Part shown: piece after piece, positions 2,924-14,672 of the stretch
Position numbering within the stretch: position 1 is the stretch's first letter
Layout of the letters: the number at the start of each line of letters is the position of its first letter
Source: a virus
Strand: one strand, 5' to 3'
Virus record (IMG/VR): IMGVR_UViG_3300020205_002701
Span: 1 to 25,859 of that record
DNA length: 25,859 bases
The notes under the pieces: model-generated
Seen by the model: the letters and a program-made list of their open reading frames with translations, nothing else
Databases searched by the model: none
What the model was told of the DNA's origin: nothing
Made by a program: the position numbers and the translations under genes

Positions 2924-3295
2924 ATGAAAACATTTCTAATTTTATTTGTCTTAGGCGGCTGCTCACAAATTTCTGAAGTACAGGAATTTGAAATCGAAGC
3001 AAAGAATCGAGGCTGTACGTATCTGCCGACGACGATACACTTCACTCAATTTTTAAAACCTAAAACGGCTGGGTACTGCTTGCCTGGATTTGGCGTTTTT
3101 ATCAATAAAAAATATTGGGAGGAGTACGGAAAATATCAGAGGCTTGAACTGATTTTCCACGAAATGGGACATTGCGGGCTTGGGTATCAGCACAGCGATA
3201 CGGATGGGATTATGTCACCCACGATGCATTTTGAAGAGGAAATAGAAGCATCATGGGCGATATGGGTAGATGAATTTTTTGAAGAATGCAATTAG
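2924..3295 (+). CDS. Putative lipoprotein zinc metalloprotease
   Basis: 123 residues. A short hydrophobic N-terminus (residues 2-12) ends in LGGC with Cys13, which fits a short type II (lipoprotein) signal. Residues 79-90 read HEMGHCGLGYQH. This is HExxH with a further His seven residues on, one residue longer than the metzincin spacing HExxHxxGxxH. It is followed by GIMSP (95-99), resembling a Met-turn. Small phage proteins with this HE.GHC...H...IM arrangement are known as putative peptidases, but their substrate is not established. If the signal works, the protein would act at the cell envelope, for example in superinfection exclusion or envelope remodelling (inference). The gene has no SD and its stop overlaps that of the convergent gene at 3292. 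Confidence 0.6.
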   Translation: MKTFLILFVLGGCSQISEVQEFEIEAKNRGCTYLPTTIHFTQFLKPKTAGYCLPGFGVFINKKYWEEYGKYQRLELIFHEMGHCGLGYQHSDTDGIMSPTMHFEEEIEASWAIWVDEFFEECN

Positions 3296-4519: not shown

Positions 4520-4822
4520 ATGGACAAAGTGACAGTAAATGGCGTTGATTATTTCAAGAAAGAAACTGGATCAATTAAGATTGCAATCCTTCAAAGAGGG
4601 TGGGTCATGGTCGGCTATTTTAGTCGAGAAGGCAACGACTGCACATTAACAGATGCAAGCGTCATTAGAACTTGGGGGACGACTAGGGGACTAGGGGAAA
4701 TTGCGCTAGGTGGCCCAACTTCATCGACAAAATTAGACAAAGCCGGAACCGTTCAATTTGATTACTTGACGGTTGTTGCGCTGGTAAGTTGTGAGGAGTT
4801 GAAATGGAAAAACGCACTATAA
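4520..4822 (+). CDS. DUF6948-like small protein
   Basis: 100 residues from ATG 4520, preceded by AGGAG at 4508-4512. A GTG at 4493 would add nine residues but has no SD. The segment at residues 48-80, with VIRTWGTTRGLGEIALGGPT and a TVQF motif, matches the pattern of small phage proteins I know as DUF6948: compact, beta-rich, function unknown. The gene overlaps the next one (4804) by 19 nt, with that gene's GAGGAG SD inside its own 3' end. The two are therefore translationally coupled and probably work together. Confidence 0.6.
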   Translation: MDKVTVNGVDYFKKETGSIKIAILQRGWVMVGYFSREGNDCTLTDASVIRTWGTTRGLGEIALGGPTSSTKLDKAGTVQFDYLTVVALVSCEELKWKNAL

Positions 4823-5085
4823 ATTTTGAAGATTCGCAATCCTCATTTGGGAAATGGGACGAGTACGGGAACGGGAACGGGTACGGGTACGGGTACGGGA
4901 ACGACGGGAACGGGAACGGGGACGGGTACGGGTACGGAACCGGGAAAGGGAGCGGGGACGGGTACGGGTACGGAACCGGGAAAGGGAGCGGGTACGGGAA
5001 CGGGGACGGGTACGGGTACGGGAACGACGGGAACGGGAACGGGGACGGGGACGGGGACGGGAAAGAGAACGGGAACGGGTACTAG
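4804..5085 (+). CDS. Gly-Tyr/Asn/Asp repeat protein encoded by a hexanucleotide array
   Basis: 93 residues. This frame is chosen because ATG 4804 has GAGGAG 6 nt upstream (4793-4798) and is coupled to the preceding gene. After 21 ordinary residues the protein is almost entirely G-x dipeptides (GN, GY, GD, with GT, GK and GS blocks) and ends in GY at a TAG. The other two forward frames are also open across the array (Gly-Thr and Arg-rich dipeptides) but lack a good start. No structure or enzyme can be predicted; a flexible or phase-separating low-complexity protein is possible. Its TAG touches the TAG of the convergent HNH gene (TAGCTA at 5083-5088). Confidence 0.6.
4867..5082 (+). repeat. GGGNAC hexanucleotide array (telomere-like, G-quadruplex-prone)
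   Basis: About 35 consecutive six-base units, mostly GGGAAC, GGGTAC or GGGGAC, interrupted twice by GAC (4903 and 5026) and by GGAACC, GGGAAA, GGGAGC and GAGAAC variants. By my count 32 GGG tracts fall on one strand, mostly 3 nt apart. Higher-order copies exist: a 36-bp unit at 4924-4959 and 4960-4995 (one base different), and a 39-bp unit at 4885-4923 and 5008-5046. This indicates growth by duplication or slippage, with reading frame kept. Confidence 0.9.
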
Positions 5086-5424
5086 CTACTTGATCCGCAA
5101 AAGAAAGATACGCCGAATTGCAGAAATTGATTCATTAATCGACCGATTTGCTTTTTTGTAATCACCCAGATGGCCGACAAATAGGTGGCAGTTGATGCCA
5201 CTTTTTTTGCTTTCGCATAGTGCCAAAAGGTTTGACGGATCTAGCTCCCTTTCGGGAGCCTCATGAAACGGCACAACATGGTGAGCCTCTAACTTGTCGA
5301 TACCTCCGCACACAGCACAACATGCATCTTTTAAAAAATCATTTCTAAACTTGCGCCATTTTGGAGAACGACGTTTGAAGTTTTTGGTTTTGCCAAGCAG
5401 TTGATCTTTTAAAATGCTTATCAT
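5086..5424 (-). CDS. HNH endonuclease
   Basis: 112 residues from ATG 5424, which overlaps the amidase stop (ATGA) and has GAAGAG about 8 nt upstream. A longer start at 5448 has no SD. Motifs: CxxC at Cys36/Cys39; the HH pair at 48-49 in [17 protein letters not shown] with Asn65 and Cys70; NCH at 78-80; His85. This is the zinc-stabilised beta-beta-alpha-metal HNH fold with all key residues. The basic N-terminus could bind DNA. A phage HNH protein of this size may assist packaging or act as a free-standing homing nuclease. Its position behind the endolysin rather than near a terminase argues slightly against packaging. Confidence 0.85.
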
Positions 5425-6308
5425 GTTTTCGGCTCTTCTTTGCGCCATAAAAAGAAATCTTCAATGCCTCTGCTGATTGCCTTGACACTTTTATCCACCA
5501 TTAAATCAACACTGACAGGCAAAGGCCCGTCGATGAAAAAGCATTCTACGAGGCAGCAAGGGATTTTTGAAGGCACACCACGAAGCACGCCAAGGCTTTG
5601 CTCTTTAACGCCACGATTTGGGATTTCATGGAAAGCTTTTAAACCGGCAAGAATTTTCCCAGCTAGAATTTTGTCAGCCTCTGACGCTTGATTTTGATTC
5701 AGAACGAGTGTCTCAAAGCCTTGAGCCTTAAGATTAAAAGCATTGTGGTGGATTGAGACAAAGCAATCATGGCCAGCAGCCTTGCTTCCTTTTTGTCTTA
5801 AAGTTAGTTTCAGGTTTGGATTGTCGTAATAATAGACATCCACCGTCGCGCCAAGTTTTTCCAAAGCTTCCTTAACGCCGAGGCCAGTGCGGTGATTAAG
5901 ATCAACTTCTTTTACGCCGTTGCCCGTAGCTCCAACGTCAAACGTGGCTAGAGAGGCATCAAACCCGTGACCGCAATCAATCGCTATTTTCATTCCAGTT
6001 AAAGTTCTGTCCACTCTTGCCTGCATTTGTGAGATGTTTACGAGCGCGTTCTCTCGTCTTTCCGCGACGATCACACCTTTTGAATATCCTACGATTCTTA
6101 TCTTGCGCTCGCCGGAGCCTTTAAATTCATAGGCACATTCCCATGCACCGTCTTTTATTTTTGCTTCACCAAATTTATAAGTCTCGGCGTATAGTTCGAT
6201 CTTATCAACTGTCTTTCCGCACTCGCCGCGAAAAAGGTAGTTAGTCTTTAAGGCGATTGGCCTTGCGAAATTATTTTCGACCGTTAAAAAATTTGCGTCG
6301 CTTGGCAT
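5421..6308 (-). CDS. N-acetylmuramoyl-L-alanine amidase (endolysin, Amidase_3 type)
   Basis: 295 residues, ATG 6308 with AAGGTGAG just upstream. Residues about 105-285 form a zinc amidase of the AmiA/CwlV (Amidase_3) family: DCGHG with His114, Glu134 in VKEVDLNHR, the SIHHN motif with His187, and the catalytic Glu255 in CLVECFF. It cuts the bond between muramic acid and L-alanine in peptidoglycan. Residues about 8-95 look like a beta-sandwich (Ig-like) domain, possibly for substrate or wall binding. There is no signal peptide, so release would need a holin or similar. The HNH gene follows with a 4-bp overlap. Role in lysis is inferred from the family. Confidence 0.9.
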   Translation of the reverse strand: MPSDANFLTVENNFARPIALKTNYLFRGECGKTVDKIELYAETYKFGEAKIKDGAWECAYEFKGSGERKIRIVGYSKGVIVAERRENALVNISQMQARVDRTLTGMKIAIDCGHGFDASLATFDVGATGNGVKEVDLNHRTGLGVKEALEKLGATVDVYYYDNPNLKLTLRQKGSKAAGHDCFVSIHHNAFNLKAQGFETLVLNQNQASEADKILAGKILAGLKAFHEIPNRGVKEQSLGVLRGVPSKIPCCLVECFFIDGPLPVSVDLMVDKSVKAISRGIEDFFLWRKEEPKT

Positions 6309-6796: not shown

Positions 6797-6824
6797 AATT
6801 TAGCAGAAAAAAATCGCTAGTCAA
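6797..6824 (-). promoter_or_regulatory. Sigma70-like promoter of the HTH gene
   Basis: On the - strand TTGACT (6824-6819) and TAAATT (6802-6797) are 16 nt apart. Seven bases separate the -10 from the ATG at 6789, placing the start site at or beside the start codon. The -35 overlaps the stop codon of the 6821-7078 gene. Confidence 0.5.
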
Positions 6825-7078
6825 AGCCTTTTGTCATCTGAGTTCTCTAACTCATCGACCCGCTTCTCAAGCCGAAGTAAGTCTCGGCGAACGTCTTCAA
6901 TGCCTTTTGTGATAAAATTAGTGGCGGCTTCAAGCTTGAAAAACCCCTCTAACAGGCGGTCAACCTTCTTTATGAGTTCCTTGTCTACTCTCTCAACTCC
7001 TCTTATTTTGTCAGTAACTAGCCAAGCGCACCCGCCGACTAGGATCGATACAACAATGTCCGGCATGTTCGTAAGCAT
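6821..7078 (-). CDS. Small membrane protein with coiled coil (holin-like)
   Basis: 85 residues from ATG 7078, with GGAGAG 6 nt upstream. One hydrophobic segment (residues 7-22, IVVSILVGGCAWLVTD) is followed by a long charged heptad-like helix (about 25-80, ending LLRLEKRVDELENSD). This resembles XhlA-type or other small phage lysis accessory proteins, with the membrane segment at the N-terminal end. Its place upstream of the amidase region fits a holin or holin accessory, but with a single membrane segment the call stays tentative. It is the first gene leftward from the control region. Confidence 0.6.
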   Translation of the reverse strand: MLTNMPDIVVSILVGGCAWLVTDKIRGVERVDKELIKKVDRLLEGFFKLEAATNFITKGIEDVRRDLLRLEKRVDELENSDDKRL

Positions 7079-8236: not shown

Positions 8237-9649
8237 GTGCTAGACGTTTTAGCTAAAATTGGATTTAAACTTTCTGACGGCCAATTGAAGTTCAAAAGAA
8301 CTGTAGTGAACGACAATAATTTAGGCCAAATACTCATCGACAATTTAGGTTCCTCCTCCCACCCCGCAGTAATTGATTACTATCAAAACTATTCTGGGGC
8401 CGAGAGAACTAAAAAACTCCTAGATGAATACGTCTCTAAAAACTACAAGCCTACAACTCTAGACCTAAGCAAGGTCAAGTACCGAGATGAACTCCCTTGG
8501 ACTTTAGACCAAATAAAAATTGTCTTAGATCAAGGCAATCCGAGAATGTCTTGGCTAGTTTTTCCTAAAGGCCCAGCAGACGAAATAAATACTGAGGTGT
8601 TGGAGCGTGAAATAGCTAAAAATCTAGGCGATCAAACTGAGGAGTTTTTAGCTAAGTATAGGTTTACTGGTAGAGTTGGGTACTTCCCTAAAAATACAGA
8701 CTACAAAGTTGTAAAAGACAACTCCGTATACGTAAACCTCTGGACTCGCCCAGAGTGGGAGACTTGCGAGGCCCCCTTGTACGACGTCGAGAAGTTCGAG
8801 GAATTTATGAATCACTTTTTCCCAGAGGAAAAAGATAGAAAGTTTATGTACGCATTCGGTAGAGATGTCGTAGACAGTAGGGCCGGGGCCGCTGTTATCT
8901 TAGCTGGGGTTCCAGGGACAGGTAAGAACACTTTTGTGGATTTTATACTGGGGGGCCTAGTTGGGGATGCAAATTTCAGGAAAGCTGTAATGGGTGAAGG
9001 GCGTGGCGGTGGAGCTAAGTTTCATAGTGGTGTTGAGAAATGCCGCCTTAGATTCTACGACGAGATAAATCTTACAGGCCCCATAAGGAATGACATTAAG
9101 GGGTTTATGAATAAAGCCGCTGCGGTTGAACTTAAAGGGGTGAATGTCAGCGCCCCGTATACTATGCATGCCTCATTTGTACTGGCCAATAACTCCCCTT
9201 CTAAAATAGAACTCGAGTACGATGACAGAAAGTTCTTTGTGCCTAGACTATCTACTGTAAAGCTAGAGGATGTTTTTGGGGATGATTGGGTCACAGATTT
9301 TATTGAAGAAGTCCAAACTCCAGCGGCTATAAAATCTATCTACCACATGTGTGTAGAAAAGGGGTTTGGCGTAGATACCAAGAAGCCCCATAAGACTCCA
9401 GAGTTTTACAAATATTGCCTTAACAGTATGCCCTACGACATTAAAATAATTTTAGGGGTCTTAGAAAAGAAGCCCTATGTAGAAATTAAAAAACCTAAGT
9501 ACAAGATAGAAGGCTCTGAGATACAACAAAAATTTGATGAGTACTTTGAGAAGTCCGGGGTTGTCCTAGGTAAAGTAATATTCGAAGGTCGAAGGTGTAT
9601 TGTAACTAGGCCAGACTATGACCCCAGTGCAGAGTTGGCCGCCCTATGA
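8237..9649 (+). CDS. SF3-type replicative helicase (primase-helicase C-terminal type)
   Basis: 470 residues from GTG 8237, with GGGAG 6 nt upstream; the overlapping ATG at 8235 meets TAG two codons on. Walker A is GVPGTGKN at 224-231, Walker B is FYDE at 273-276, and the sensor or motif C region is LANNS at 316-320. This is the AAA+/SF3 arrangement of phage DUF5906-like (D5-type) helicases that unwind DNA at the fork. Basic GRGGGAK around 255 may contact DNA. The N-terminal 200 residues show no primase catalytic motif I can identify, so priming may be done by another protein or by the host. The polymerase follows with an ATGA overlap. Confidence 0.8.
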   Translation: MLDVLAKIGFKLSDGQLKFKRTVVNDNNLGQILIDNLGSSSHPAVIDYYQNYSGAERTKKLLDEYVSKNYKPTTLDLSKVKYRDELPWTLDQIKIVLDQGNPRMSWLVFPKGPADEINTEVLEREIAKNLGDQTEEFLAKYRFTGRVGYFPKNTDYKVVKDNSVYVNLWTRPEWETCEAPLYDVEKFEEFMNHFFPEEKDRKFMYAFGRDVVDSRAGAAVILAGVPGTGKNTFVDFILGGLVGDANFRKAVMGEGRGGGAKFHSGVEKCRLRFYDEINLTGPIRNDIKGFMNKAAAVELKGVNVSAPYTMHASFVLANNSPSKIELEYDDRKFFVPRLSTVKLEDVFGDDWVTDFIEEVQTPAAIKSIYHMCVEKGFGVDTKKPHKTPEFYKYCLNSMPYDIKIILGVLEKKPYVEIKKPKYKIEGSEIQQKFDEYFEKSGVVLGKVIFEGRRCIVTRPDYDPSAELAAL

Positions 9650-11625
9650 AAACACTATACTTAGACTTTGAATTTACAAATATCAACGAACAAGACTTTA
9701 AACTCGTCTGCGCTTGTTCAGTCCTTTACGACGGTGGAGTTTTATTAGAAAAAAGGTCGTTTTGGTTTTACAACGGCGAAGACACTAAGCTAGCTCAAAA
9801 CTACTTTCACGACCTCATGGACGAGGGAGTCACTTTCGTGGCTTACGTCATGGAAGCCGAGGCTCGCGCTTTATTCACCCTATTCGGCACCGCCAATATT
9901 GATATAAACGCCATAGACCTCTACCTCGAATACAGATGCCTAACTAACCATTGGGAAGACTACGCTTATGGACAACAACTCATTAACGGTAAAGTGGTTA
10001 AGACGACTCCTCCGCCTCTATACACAGAGATTGACGAGGAAGACGACGAGAAGCATCACAAACCCCAACACTCCCTCGCCGCATGTACGTTCAAACTCTT
10101 AAATAAAATTATCGACACTGAGGAGAAAAAAGATGTTCGGGATATCATTATACTCGAAAGAGATATTGAACTTCATCGTCAGAGGATTCTTGATTACTGT
10201 ATGTCTGATATCCTTAATTTACGTGACATTTTTAGGGCGATTGGAATGGCTCATCTCAAAAGTGGTTTCGCTTTTGATGAGTTTATTGGCGCTGCCCGTT
10301 GCCGGGGTAGTTATTCTGTCTACGCGGCTAGAATGTCGCGTCTTGGGTACCCAGTCAACATGGAAAAAATCAGAAGATTCTCAACCTCTGTCACAGAAAT
10401 CTTAAACGAATCCGCCAAAGATGTTATCGCCGCTTCTGAAACTCCCTTATTTAGAAAAAATCTAAAGACGGGCCTTTACTCCATGCACATCGCCTCTATC
10501 CGCGAGTTAATTCTAACGACCCCCTACGCGGACAAGTGGCTTAGAACCGATAAAGATCAACTATCATATTCGCGGAAGGCGTTTGACAAGTTTTACAGTA
10601 AAGAAACTCCCGGAGCCATTGGAGCCTTCATCCGTTACTTAAGCCTAAAGCAATCCCTCAACGGCTTTCTCCCTTCGAAAGGCGCTAAGACTAAAAAGTT
10701 TTTCGACTTTGTGGGAACCGACGACCGCGTTAGATATTTTCAAGGCATTTACGGTTCTCAGAGTTCCCGTAGTCAGCCCGGCGCTTCAGGGTTTATTCCG
10801 CTGAAGGCTCATTGGATGAGAAATTTTATAGAGGCCCCCAAAGGTAGGGCAATCGCAGGCATCGACTACGCCTCGCAAGAGTTCCTACTCGCTGCCGTTC
10901 TAGCTCAGGATAACGCCATGATCGCTGCATACGCTTCTGGCGACATTTATCTTGCGTTTGCGAAGTTAGCTAGACTTTGCCCGCCTGACGCGACTAAGAC
11001 GAGCCACAAGGCCGTGAGAGACGCCTGCAAGGCCCTAGTCCTCGGTATGAGTTATGACATGGGAAAAGACGGACTAGCCGCTCGTATGACTGCCGATTCG
11101 GGTAAGGTCTACACTTCAGAAGACGCCGAGAAATTTATCGAAATGTTTTTTGAAACTTACCCCGATTATGCCGAGTGGAAGAGGGATAACTTACGTACCT
11201 ACCGCGAGGAAGGAAGACTTCAACTCCCTGACGGTTGGGTAATGTGGGGCGATAACCCCAATTTCCGAAGCGTAGGCAATTTTCCTGTGCAAGGTTTAGG
11301 CGCTGTTATTATGAGAGAGGCAGTGAAACTCGCCTTCGCCCGCGGACTCGACGTAATTTTCACCCTTCATGACGCTCTGTACATCGAATACGATTCTGGA
11401 GATTTCAGTGCTATTAAAACACTTATTGATTGCATGGCAGAGGCGTTTACCGCACAAGCTAGTAAATTTGGGCGCTTCATACCTATTCGCCTAGAGGGCG
11501 AAACATGGTCTAGGGACTATACGAGTGATACGGATAGTGGCATCCCCGGCGTACACTGCATGAGCGAGTACATCGACGAGCGAGGCAGGAGAGATTACTT
11601 ACGGTTTAAAAAATATTTTGTTTGA
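9646..11625 (+). CDS. Family A DNA polymerase with 3'-5' exonuclease domain
   Basis: 659 residues, start in the ATGA overlap. The exonuclease domain has motif I LDFEF (Asp7, Glu9) and motif III YCMSD (Tyr184, Asp188). The motif II region reads AYVMEAEAR (66-74), with Glu where most enzymes have Asp. Polymerase motif A is IDYASQEF (406-413, Asp407), motif B spans Arg458/Lys462 to Tyr470, and motif C is LHDALYIE (His575, Asp576). There is no 5' nuclease domain, as usual for phage enzymes. The set supports a replicative polymerase with proofreading. A second ORF with hydrophobic product is overprinted at 10133-10405, where wobble base use changes sharply. Confidence 0.95.
   Translation: MKTLYLDFEFTNINEQDFKLVCACSVLYDGGVLLEKRSFWFYNGEDTKLAQNYFHDLMDEGVTFVAYVMEAEARALFTLFGTANIDINAIDLYLEYRCLTNHWEDYAYGQQLINGKVVKTTPPPLYTEIDEEDDEKHHKPQHSLAACTFKLLNKIIDTEEKKDVRDIIILERDIELHRQRILDYCMSDILNLRDIFRAIGMAHLKSGFAFDEFIGAARCRGSYSVYAARMSRLGYPVNMEKIRRFSTSVTEILNESAKDVIAASETPLFRKNLKTGLYSMHIASIRELILTTPYADKWLRTDKDQLSYSRKAFDKFYSKETPGAIGAFIRYLSLKQSLNGFLPSKGAKTKKFFDFVGTDDRVRYFQGIYGSQSSRSQPGASGFIPLKAHWMRNFIEAPKGRAIAGIDYASQEFLLAAVLAQDNAMIAAYASGDIYLAFAKLARLCPPDATKTSHKAVRDACKALVLGMSYDMGKDGLAARMTADSGKVYTSEDAEKFIEMFFETYPDYAEWKRDNLRTYREEGRLQLPDGWVMWGDNPNFRSVGNFPVQGLGAVIMREAVKLAFARGLDVIFTLHDALYIEYDSGDFSAIKTLIDCMAEAFTAQASKFGRFIPIRLEGETWSRDYTSDTDSGIPGVHCMSEYIDERGRRDYLRFKKYFV
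10095..10128 (+). repeat. 34-bp exact direct repeat, copy 1 (in polymerase gene)
   Basis: Identical to 14228-14261. It encodes LLNKIIDTEEK in both genes, in the same frame, and carries GAGGAG (10120-10125), which sits 7 nt before the ATG of the overprinted ORF at 10133. In the polymerase the peptide fits its surroundings (SLAAC..LL...IDTE.K...RDII, a pattern I associate with related phage polymerases), so this is probably the donor copy. Confidence 0.95.
10133..10405 (+). CDS. Possible overprinted two-TM (holin-like) gene inside the polymerase gene
   Basis: 90 codons in the +1 frame of the polymerase. ATG 10133 has GAGGAG exactly 7 nt upstream, one of the best SD sites in the window. The product has two hydrophobic segments (about residues 11-34 and 40-63) and a polar, charged C-terminus, the layout of class II holins. 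By my hand count, pyrimidine-ending polymerase codons end in C about 57 of 91 times before this ORF but 15 of 54 times inside it. T at that position makes the overprinted codons hydrophobic. Alternative: a recombined segment with other codon use. Expression is unproven. Confidence 0.35.
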   Translation: MFGISLYSKEILNFIVRGFLITVCLISLIYVTFLGRLEWLISKVVSLLMSLLALPVAGVVILSTRLECRVLGTQSTWKKSEDSQPLSQKS

Positions 11626-12926: not shown

Positions 12927-14175
12927 ACATTTAAATTTATATCCGTTCCAAAAAGCCTCCGCAATTTTTCACGCCGAAAGACGCTATTCAATGAATTGTA
13001 GCGAAATGGGCCTTGGGAAGTCGCGGATGGCTCTTGCGGCTGCAATCCTTGCAGGGGCGAAAGAAGTCGCTGTATTCGCCCCAGCTTTCCTCCGTAGAAC
13101 TTGGGAAGTTGAGGGCGCTGTATGTGGCGTCAAAATTCAATTTATGTCTTACTCAATTATAACGTCGATTACGGCGTTAGAATGGGAGATTCTTTCACAT
13201 AAAGATTTTTGGATTTTTGACGAAGCTTCGTATCTCAAGAATCCCATGGCTAAAAGGACGAAAACCCTCAATTACGCTCTTAGGACGTACAGGCCGGGCC
13301 ACTTAGTTATGCTTACGGGTACCCCGATACGAAACAAGGTGTTTGACTTTTGGACGCTCCTTGCTTACATCGACGCTAACCCGATTCCAAATTTAGATGA
13401 GAAGCCTTTAATCGGCAACCTCCGCACTTACACAGGCTTTGCTAGAAATTTCTGTAACATAAAAGAAATTAAACTCCCTGGAAGGCCCGTGATAGTAAAG
13501 TACTTGGGTCTTAGAGAAGACAAGGTAGGAGAGATTAAAGAACTTTTAAAAGGGAAGTACATCCGGCATACGATAGAGTCGGTTAAACTCCAGCTTCCAG
13601 AAATGATAAATAAAGATGTCGTTTTTGACCTTAAAGAGATGCCCGAGACGGAAGAAGTTTTTAAGGCATATATTGAGGGAAGGAAAGTGTCTCCTACGGG
13701 TAAGGAACACTCTGCAAGGATAAAAGTACCGCACACGATAGCGTATGTTGATTTTTTATTTGAGTCGGAAGGCGTCAAACAAATCGTTATTTTCACCGAT
13801 CACATTTTACCGGCGCAAGAGATTGCCAGAGGTTTAAAAAAGTACGGGTCTTTTGAAATTACTGGAGCCACTGACGCCGAAGATAGGTCATTTGCGGTGG
13901 ATCAGTTTCAACGAGGCGGCATTAGGATTTTAGTGTGTACGATTGGGAGTATGTCTGTAGGCGTAACTCTTACAGCGGCGCAAGATGTCGTATTCAATGA
14001 TTTGTCGTGGGTGCCCGCCGACAATATGCAAGCACGAAAGAGGATTCACCGGATCGGGCAGTCAAAGAAATGTCGCTGCCACCATATGATTTCAGGGCCT
14101 ACAGATGCTTATATAAAAGCGGTTTTAGAAGAAAAAGAAAAAACAATTAACTCAGTTTTAGAGGACACGAAATGA
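12892..14175 (+). CDS. SNF2-type DEAD/H helicase (DNA-dependent ATPase)
   Basis: 427 residues. Motif I is EMGLGKS (38-44), motif II DEAS (110-113), motif III LTGTP (141-145) and motif VI QARKRIHRIGQ (380-390), with a motif V region GVTLTAAQDVVF before it. These are the hallmarks of SNF2/Rad54 family DNA translocases. At 427 residues it is the compact phage form without extra domains. It probably remodels DNA during recombination or replication with the neighbouring nuclease. ATG 12892 overlaps the nuclease gene by 35 nt; the SD is weak (GAAG), so translation is likely coupled. Confidence 0.9.
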   Translation: MSESELRLASIEHLNLYPFQKASAIFHAERRYSMNCSEMGLGKSRMALAAAILAGAKEVAVFAPAFLRRTWEVEGAVCGVKIQFMSYSIITSITALEWEILSHKDFWIFDEASYLKNPMAKRTKTLNYALRTYRPGHLVMLTGTPIRNKVFDFWTLLAYIDANPIPNLDEKPLIGNLRTYTGFARNFCNIKEIKLPGRPVIVKYLGLREDKVGEIKELLKGKYIRHTIESVKLQLPEMINKDVVFDLKEMPETEEVFKAYIEGRKVSPTGKEHSARIKVPHTIAYVDFLFESEGVKQIVIFTDHILPAQEIARGLKKYGSFEITGATDAEDRSFAVDQFQRGGIRILVCTIGSMSVGVTLTAAQDVVFNDLSWVPADNMQARKRIHRIGQSKKCRCHHMISGPTDAYIKAVLEEKEKTINSVLEDTK

Positions 14176-14672
14176 CAAAAGCTAGTAAGAAGAAAGTGGT
14201 TAAGAAGGCGAAAGCAAAAACCGCGGCACTCTTAAATAAAATTATCGACACTGAGGAGAAAGCAAAAATGGCGGCTAAAGTGGTTAAAATAAAACCAGCC
14301 CCCAGCGACTTAGGGGATATTGTGTTCACAAACGCCGTATTCACGCCTCATCTTTCAGAAGTTATGGCGGTTGTGGCGAATAGTAGAAATTTAAAAGGCC
14401 CAGTGGCGTATAAAGTATTTTTACTGTGCAGTAAATTAGACGCTCTAGCTCCGGTGGTTAGGGAGTCAATCACGAAGATCATGATGTCTCACGCTAAGAA
14501 CCCAGACCCGACGGTTAAATTTGAGGTTTTAGACAAGGTTGCCTACGAGGCAGAAGTTAATGAGTTTTTAAGTATTAAAAATTATACGGATATCGCTAAA
14601 TTTAGTGTGGAAGATTTCGCCAATATCGGATTGTCCCCCAACGACTACGCCACTCTCGCCTTCATATTCTAG
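14172..14672 (+). CDS. Small phage protein with basic N-terminal extension
   Basis: 166 residues, start in the ATGA overlap with AGAGGA upstream. Residues 1-37 are Lys/Ala/Val-rich and contain LLNKIIDTEEK (20-30), encoded by the exact copy of polymerase DNA. An internal ATG at 14268 (Met33) has its own GAGGAG 9 nt upstream, so a shorter 134-residue form may also be made. The remainder (HLSEVMAVVANS... to LSPNDYATLAFIF) has the helical layout of a widespread class of small phage proteins of unknown function found near replication genes. The basic extension could bind nucleic acid (inference). Confidence 0.6.
   Translation: MTKASKKKVVKKAKAKTAALLNKIIDTEEKAKMAAKVVKIKPAPSDLGDIVFTNAVFTPHLSEVMAVVANSRNLKGPVAYKVFLLCSKLDALAPVVRESITKIMMSHAKNPDPTVKFEVLDKVAYEAEVNEFLSIKNYTDIAKFSVEDFANIGLSPNDYATLAFIF
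14211..14275 (+). repeat. 34-bp repeat copy 2 flanked by 17-bp direct repeats
   Basis: 14228-14261 equals 10095-10128. It is bracketed by imperfect 17-bp repeats, 14211-14227 and 14259-14275 (AAAGCAAAAAnnGCGGC, 15 of 17 identical). This looks like an insertion or template switch within a Lys/Ala codon tract. Confidence 0.8.

What the first reader, a model, noticed from the sequence alone, without database searches (positions are those of the whole stretch)
10133..10405. Overprinted two-TM ORF in the DNA polymerase gene, with a matching switch in polymerase wobble bases
A +1-frame ORF of 90 codons has GAGGAG 7 nt before its ATG and encodes two hydrophobic segments plus a polar tail. In the polymerase frame, C-ending pyrimidine codons fall from about 63% upstream to about 28% inside the ORF, then C again becomes common downstream (hand counts). 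Polymerase third positions are second positions of the overprinted ORF, where T gives Phe, Leu, Ile, Val or Met. Selection for a membrane protein would leave just this trace. A holin embedded in a polymerase gene would be new to me.
Basis: partly seen in the sequence, partly recalled or inferred. Interest (0 to 1): 0.8.

Follow-up and report, generated by a model that had tools for sequence, protein, structure and literature searches.

The report
Hydrophobic ORF on T-ending codon patch
A phage DNA polymerase gene holds a short stretch of unusual codon choice that opens a membrane-protein-like reading frame in the next frame; it is most likely a side effect of that stretch, though a real hidden gene, of a type already annotated in phage T7, is not excluded.

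Summary
A 90-codon +1 ORF (10133-10405) lies inside a family A DNA polymerase gene (9646-11625). GAGGAG ends 7 nt before its ATG; it has two hydrophobic segments and a polar tail; the polymerase wobble base turns to T over the segments (C share of C+T: 62% upstream, 22% in codons 162-222, 53% downstream). The codon patch is unlikely by chance (P about 0.001; 3 of 174 genes reach P<=0.002).

Given the patch, the hydrophobicity follows from the genetic code. A sister polymerase (L015) has a stronger patch elsewhere without a two-segment ORF. Here T also rises at codons where it matters little to the second frame; in T7 gene 4.2, an annotated nested ORF of the same anatomy, it largely does not. 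0 of 41 homologues (35-52% identical) keep the ORF, but that test is weak: gene 4.2 was absent in 8 of 8 sampled helicase genes below 70% identity.

Most likely a by-product of a codon-usage patch (0.66); a real overprinted membrane protein about 0.25. The idea has precedents (phiX174 E, leviviral lysis genes in replicase, T7 4.2). A 34-nt exact repeat carrying the GAGGAG recurs at 14228-14261, unexplained.

The parts
9646..11625 (+). DNA polymerase gene, family A (host frame of the ORF)
   Evidence: PF00476 E 7.8e-17; phrog_17 E 5.4e-43
10133..10405 (+). +1-frame ORF, 90 aa, two hydrophobic segments and a polar tail; expression unknown
   Evidence: no hit in Pfam or PHROGs, no relative in viral contigs or the phage collection
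10162..10317 (+). best segment of T-ending polymerase codons (32 of 52 against 162 of 607)
   Evidence: support interval start 10102-10174, end 10312-10348
10120..10125 (+). GAGGAG, Shine-Dalgarno-like, also two Glu codons of the polymerase
10095..10128 (+). 34-nt exact repeat, copy 1 (encodes LLNKIIDTEEK in the polymerase; contains the GAGGAG)
14228..14261 (+). 34-nt exact repeat, copy 2, in the same reading frame inside gene 14172-14672

Best explanation
The polymerase gene carries a patch of about 50-60 codons whose third bases are T far more often than in the rest of the gene. No stop codon has T at its second base, and codons with T there encode only Phe, Leu, Ile, Met or Val; so such a patch tends to keep the +1 frame open and makes it hydrophobic. 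An ATG and a purine-rich Glu-Glu codon pair precede it. The ORF is a by-product with no selected product. Shown: the patch, its significance, and that it accounts for the hydrophobicity. Inferred: that no selected product is made, and the cause of the patch (for example a short recombination tract from an unsampled relative with T-ending codons).
For: Redrawing codons for the same protein with the patch's third-base bias gives hydropathy 1.51 +- 0.32 (observed 1.64), without it 0.12. L015, a homologous polymerase, has a stronger T patch (LR 32.2, 0 of 600 shuffles) at another place (residues 499-568 in this protein's numbering), with an open +1 frame of 72 codons but no two-segment ORF. T rises as much at codons with G in the middle (8:2 against 22:33), where it only turns Ala/Gly-type outcomes such as Ala into Val, as at the others (27:8 against 132:158); difference in ln odds +0.27 +- 0.87, L015 0.00 +- 0.84, while T7-like gene 4.2 is negative in 10 of 10 phages. 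Nested ORFs of at least 60 aa with two hydrophobic segments are not rare: 7 in 146 host genes of window and relatives, one of them low-complexity, and 5 in 61 genes of T7, lambda and N4; 6 of these 12 sit on host codons with T excess at P<0.05. 0 of 41 homologues keep the frame.
Against: The patch is significant and has no shown cause. Even given the patch, an ORF of at least 90 codons is expected in only 2.6% of draws (17% for at least 60). The ATG with GAGGAG at 7 nt is a good start signal, and several other genes of this virus have similar upstream motifs. No shift of ancestry towards T-ending relatives is visible in the patch. The class test rests on 10 codons with G in the middle.
Confidence: 0.66

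Rival explanations
1. A real, lineage-specific overprinted membrane protein: ribosomes start at ATG 10133 using GAGGAG and make a 90-aa two-segment membrane protein, and selection for hydrophobic residues fixed T at polymerase third positions. Its role could be holin-like, superinfection exclusion or another membrane function; nothing here distinguishes these.
For: T patch P about 0.001 confined to the hydrophobic part, with C back in the tail. T7 gene 4.2 has the same anatomy and T trace and is kept open with its ATG in 10 of 10 T7-like phages picked by 4.2 matches and in 4 of 5 phages above 70% helicase identity picked by the helicase. Its loss in 8 of 8 sampled below 70% means that absence in relatives at 52% or less says little. 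No other polymerase of 41 has the frame open, as hydrophobic a +1 product, or as large a T shift.
Against: Hydrophobicity is explained by the patch alone; T gain not confined to codons that matter to the second frame; 0 of 41 homologues; no family or sequence relative. The T7 yardstick is imperfect: one phage (Titus) keeps a T excess without the ORF (25 of 55 against 65 of 200), and synonymous sites under the hydrophobic part of 4.2 are hardly more conserved than upstream (0.57 against 0.51 fourfold; 0.68 against 0.70 twofold).
Confidence: 0.25
2. The T-ending codons are selected for the polymerase or its mRNA itself (slower translation, RNA structure or another nucleotide-level signal), and the ORF is incidental to that.
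For: The T gain is alike in all codon classes and confined to one stretch.
Against: Relatives show no T patch at the homologous place (largest shift -0.17, here -0.34). No unusual RNA fold at the ORF start, 10085-10165 (z 0.76); the patch itself was not folded.
Confidence: 0.07

Closest known systems
T7 gene 4.2 (NC_001604 12988-13326; PHROG 5140, unknown function), nested in primase/helicase gene 4
   Same: +1 frame inside a replication gene of a tailed phage; two hydrophobic segments then a polar tail; host T-ending codons raised over the segments and low over the tail.
   Different: No sequence similarity found; the 4.2 frame runs past the end of gene 4; T gain there is weak or absent at codons with G in the middle; kept in near relatives, which cannot be tested here.
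phiX174 E, nested in D
   Same: About 90 aa, +1 frame, T at host third positions becomes second positions and feeds a membrane segment (annotation; PMC8227390, section read).
   Different: D is T-rich also outside E (28 of 59 codons before, 36 of 93 within), so there is no local patch (P 0.14); E is a proven lysis protein (review).
Leviviral single-gene lysis (sgl) genes in the replicase gene
   Same: Small lysis genes wholly inside a polymerase gene in the +1 frame: 21 of 33 active candidates (PMC7693330, passages).
   Different: ssRNA phages, RNA replicase, function tested there; here a DNA polymerase gene of a DNA phage and nothing tested.
Rz1 (lambda) and 18.7 (T7) nested in Rz / 18.5
   Same: Nested out-of-frame envelope protein in a dsDNA phage (annotations).
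   Different: The host gene is itself a lysis gene next to the endolysin; Rz1-type proteins are outer-membrane lipoproteins (PMC6139136, abstract opening in listing).

Membership tests
T7 gene 4.2 / PHROG 5140 | sequence similarity to the family | tested here: not met
   P0001 has no PHROGs hit at E<=1, T7 4.2 hits phrog_5140 at 4.8e-46
T7 gene 4.2 / PHROG 5140 | +1 ORF with two hydrophobic segments and polar tail inside a replication gene | tested here: met
T7 gene 4.2 / PHROG 5140 | host T gain confined to codons where it matters to the second frame | tested here: not met
   difference +0.27 +- 0.87 here, -0.47 to -2.19 in 10 T7-like phages; wide error
T7 gene 4.2 / PHROG 5140 | frame and ATG kept in near relatives | tested here: inconclusive
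   no relative above 52% identity found
phage holin | match to a holin family | tested here: not met
   no Pfam or PHROGs hit
phage holin | one or more membrane segments in a small protein | tested here: inconclusive
   two hydrophobic stretches by a simple hydropathy window; no transmembrane predictor was run
phage holin | encoded with the endolysin | tested here: not met
   endolysin 5421-6308 on the minus strand, ORF at 10133 on the plus strand inside the replication genes; not obligatory for holins (recalled)
phage holin | timed permeabilisation of the inner membrane | not testable with these tools
   needs expression in a laboratory strain

The most novel reading that the evidence does not exclude
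A de novo two-segment membrane protein overprinted in the N-terminal part of a family A DNA polymerase gene of a dsDNA phage, started from its own ribosome site on a 34-nt stretch that is also copied into a neighbouring gene, with the polymerase's synonymous sites reshaped locally to make the product hydrophobic.
Probability: 0.2. Interest if true: 0.6.

Novelty: new member of a known kind. Interest (0 to 1): 0.3.

Why it matters
If real, it would extend nested membrane genes from the primase/helicase gene (T7 4.2) and RNA replicase genes to a DNA polymerase gene. Even as a by-product it is useful: it shows how a patch of T-ending codons makes a membrane-like ORF, and it suggests two checks for such claims: whether the T gain is confined to codons that matter to the second frame, and whether homologues above about 70% identity keep the frame.

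Tried and rejected
Recombination block of visible ancestry: identities of the patch to 36 distinct homologues show no move towards T-ending relatives; to the 8 nearest the mean is 0.34 (0.40 among those 8), and in the next segment 0.34 against 0.44, so the patch is not singled out. An unsampled donor is not excluded. Polymerase change under the patch: 0 of 9 conserved positions changed, as in 24 of 36 homologues.

The 34-nt repeat as a promoter or leader family: no third copy of a 17-base core with up to 3 mismatches in the window, no exact 21-base match in viral contigs, no shared 16-mer in the loci held then, which are stretches of contigs, not whole genomes. RNA fold at the ORF start: ordinary. 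Repeat-bearing protein 14172-14672: no tblastn match in the relatives' loci; a weak match of its C-terminal part to a protein after the helicase in L016 (E 7e-4 for that one comparison).

Controls that do not help: phiX174 D/E fails the local T test (P 0.14). The T excess under the whole of T7 4.2 has P 0.097, though the segment scan on that gene gives 0.027. Among 12 nested two-segment ORFs three have T excess at P<=0.0025 (this one, a low-complexity one in L048, one in N4), so this one is not unique. A Shine-Dalgarno-like motif of 5 bases also precedes the nested ORFs of L052 and L054 and one of N4. Chance-found nested ORFs also tend to negative values in the class test, so a negative value there is no proof of selection; only the positive value here is informative, and weakly.

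Rows dropped: one search counts all 41 homologues; five (L027, L035, L037, L038, L070) repeat the values of others and were dropped and the gene scans (36 left). L005 is partial, L015 ends at its contig end, L018 is interrupted. For the helicase-based sample I fetched 13 of 60 listed hits out of 2792 records. The T7-like ten were picked by 4.2 matches and are biased; one of them, BP12A, keeps the ORF at 69% identity over the whole protein.

Full report
What is there. The window is a 25,859-base IMG/VR virus record. The finding lies in a family A DNA polymerase gene, 9646-11625, with a primase-like gene before it and exonuclease and helicase genes after it; homologues of these lie in the same order in relatives such as L001, L003, L008 and L012. 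In the +1 frame an ORF of 90 codons runs from ATG 10133 to 10405. GAGGAG ends 7 nt before the ATG. The product has two hydrophobic stretches and a polar tail.

The codon switch. The C share of pyrimidine-ending polymerase codons is 60/97 upstream, 21/61 over the ORF, 130/247 downstream, and 10/45 over codons 162-222. The best T-rich segment is 10162-10317. Shuffling synonymous codons within the gene reaches it in about 1 of 1000 (four window sizes give 0 to 0.004). In 174 genes of at least 250 codons (61 from the window, T7, lambda and N4 1-50000; 113 from stretches of 36 relatives) three reach P<=0.002: this one, a lambda A stretch of 15 codons, and the sister polymerase L015. Eight reach P<=0.05, about what chance gives.

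What the patch implies. A T at the polymerase third base is the second base of the +1 codon, so the patch makes the +1 frame hydrophobic and removes many stops. Drawing codons for the same protein with the patch's third-base bias gives hydropathy 1.51 +- 0.32 (observed 1.64); without it 0.12. An ORF of at least 90 codons follows in 2.6% of draws, of at least 60 in 17%; without the bias 0.5% and 6.7%. Hydrophobicity is thus no independent evidence; the length is mildly unusual. Nested ORFs of at least 60 aa with two hydrophobic segments turn up 7 times in 146 host genes of window and relatives and 5 times in 61 control genes, and half of these 12 lie on T-enriched host codons (P<0.05).

Homologues. 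Searches gave 41 homologous polymerases, 35-52% identical. None keeps the frame (2 to 14 stops in the region), none has as hydrophobic a +1 product (next 0.71 against 1.64), and none as large a T shift (next -0.17 against -0.34). Of two genome-contig scans the first found none, the second one locus. The ORF product has no relative in viral contigs or in the phage collection at E<=1.

Calibration with T7. The T-segment test also flagged T7 gene 4 (P 0.027), over annotated gene 4.2, a 112-aa +1 ORF with two hydrophobic segments and a polar tail. In ten T7-like phages (T7 and nine picked by 4.2 matches, so biased) all keep ATG and frame (98-138 aa), and 23-31 of the first 55 host codons end in T, against 4-9 of the 37-39 after them. 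In 13 phages picked by the helicase protein, the ORF is kept in 4 of 5 above 70% identity and 0 of 8 below. Three Pseudomonas phages without it show T 5-7 and C 21-26 of 55 there; but Titus keeps a T excess (25 of 55) with the frame broken. Two lessons: such nested ORFs do persist in tailed phages, and absence at 52% identity or less is weak evidence.

A test between the two causes. If second-frame hydrophobicity drives T, the gain should be weak at host codons with G in the middle, where C to T only turns Ala into Val in the second frame. In gene 4.2 the difference in ln odds is negative in 10 of 10 phages (-0.47 to -2.19, standard errors about 0.8). Here the gain is as strong at those codons (8:2 against 22:33) as elsewhere (27:8 against 132:158), difference +0.27 +- 0.87; L015's patch gives 0.00 +- 0.84. 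The ten phages are related, the error here is wide, and chance-found nested ORFs also tend to negative values, so this leans towards a plain codon patch without deciding it.

The repeat. The 34 bases 10095-10128 recur exactly at 14228-14261, in frame in gene 14172-14672. The encoded stretch is native to the polymerase family (KLL..IID..EK in the five aligned), so copying from polymerase to the other gene is the likelier direction (inferred). Both copies are followed by an ATG, 7 and 9 nt after GAGGAG; three GAGGAG-N(4-10)-ATG sites occur in the window against 0.94 expected, 9 of 100 shuffles having at least 3. No stretch of a relative held then has the repeat. This is unexplained; it shows that the start signal lies on a copied piece of DNA, not what the ORF does.

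Lysis. The endolysin (Amidase_3) is at 5421-6308 on the minus strand; a minus-strand ORF 6821-7078 upstream of it has a moderately hydrophobic N-terminus (below my cut-off) and no family hit. Nothing links the 10133 ORF to lysis. The record may be a fragment, so other lysis genes may be missing.

Precedents. PMC8227390 (the section on discovery of overlapping genes read in full; other passages) describes for phiX174 D/E the same shift of T from third to second position feeding a transmembrane part. PMC7693330 (passages) reports 21 of 33 active leviviral lysis genes wholly inside the replicase gene in the +1 frame. PMC7084103 (abstract and opening) reports that hydrophobicity profiles of many proteins survive frameshifts. 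PMC8365609 and PMC4283147 (passages) discuss T7-like lysis genes; I saw no mention of gene 4.2 there as a lysis gene. I saw no report of a nested membrane gene in a dsDNA phage DNA polymerase gene in searches; these are few searches of a library that lacks most subscription papers.

Verdict. A real codon patch; the ORF is most likely its by-product (0.66). A real overprinted membrane protein of the gene 4.2 kind remains possible (0.25), and only near relatives or translation data can settle it.

Noticed in passing
window 10095-10128 and 14228-14261: Exact 34-nt direct repeat, in the same reading frame in the polymerase gene and in gene 14172-14672 (peptide LLNKIIDTEEK), each copy followed by an ATG 7-9 nt after GAGGAG.
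   Followed up: partly
L015 3953-5857, polymerase codons 519-589: A homologous polymerase with an even stronger patch of T-ending codons (32 of 70 against 84 of 565) at another place.
   Followed up: partly
L052 4016-4294, L054 4727-4930, L031 from 4496: Nested +1 ORFs with two hydrophobic segments near the 3' end of three other polymerase genes; two begin with ATG after a Shine-Dalgarno-like motif.
   Followed up: no
L072 12988-13326 (T7 gene 4.2) and L075-L088: Gene 4.2 is missing from the gene tables of 7 of the 9 T7-like records picked by 4.2 matches although all 9 keep the frame open.
   Followed up: partly
window 4854-5094: Array of 12-base-spaced repeats (ACGGGN units) in ORF 4804-5085, giving a Gly/Asn/Tyr/Asp-rich protein.
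   Followed up: no
window 6821-7078 (-): 85-aa ORF upstream of the endolysin gene with a moderately hydrophobic N-terminus and charged remainder, no family hit; possible holin or spanin.
   Followed up: no
window 2924-3295: 123-aa protein with a weak match to a phage metallopeptidase family just below its cut-off (23 against 23.7 bits) and an HEMGH motif.
   Followed up: no
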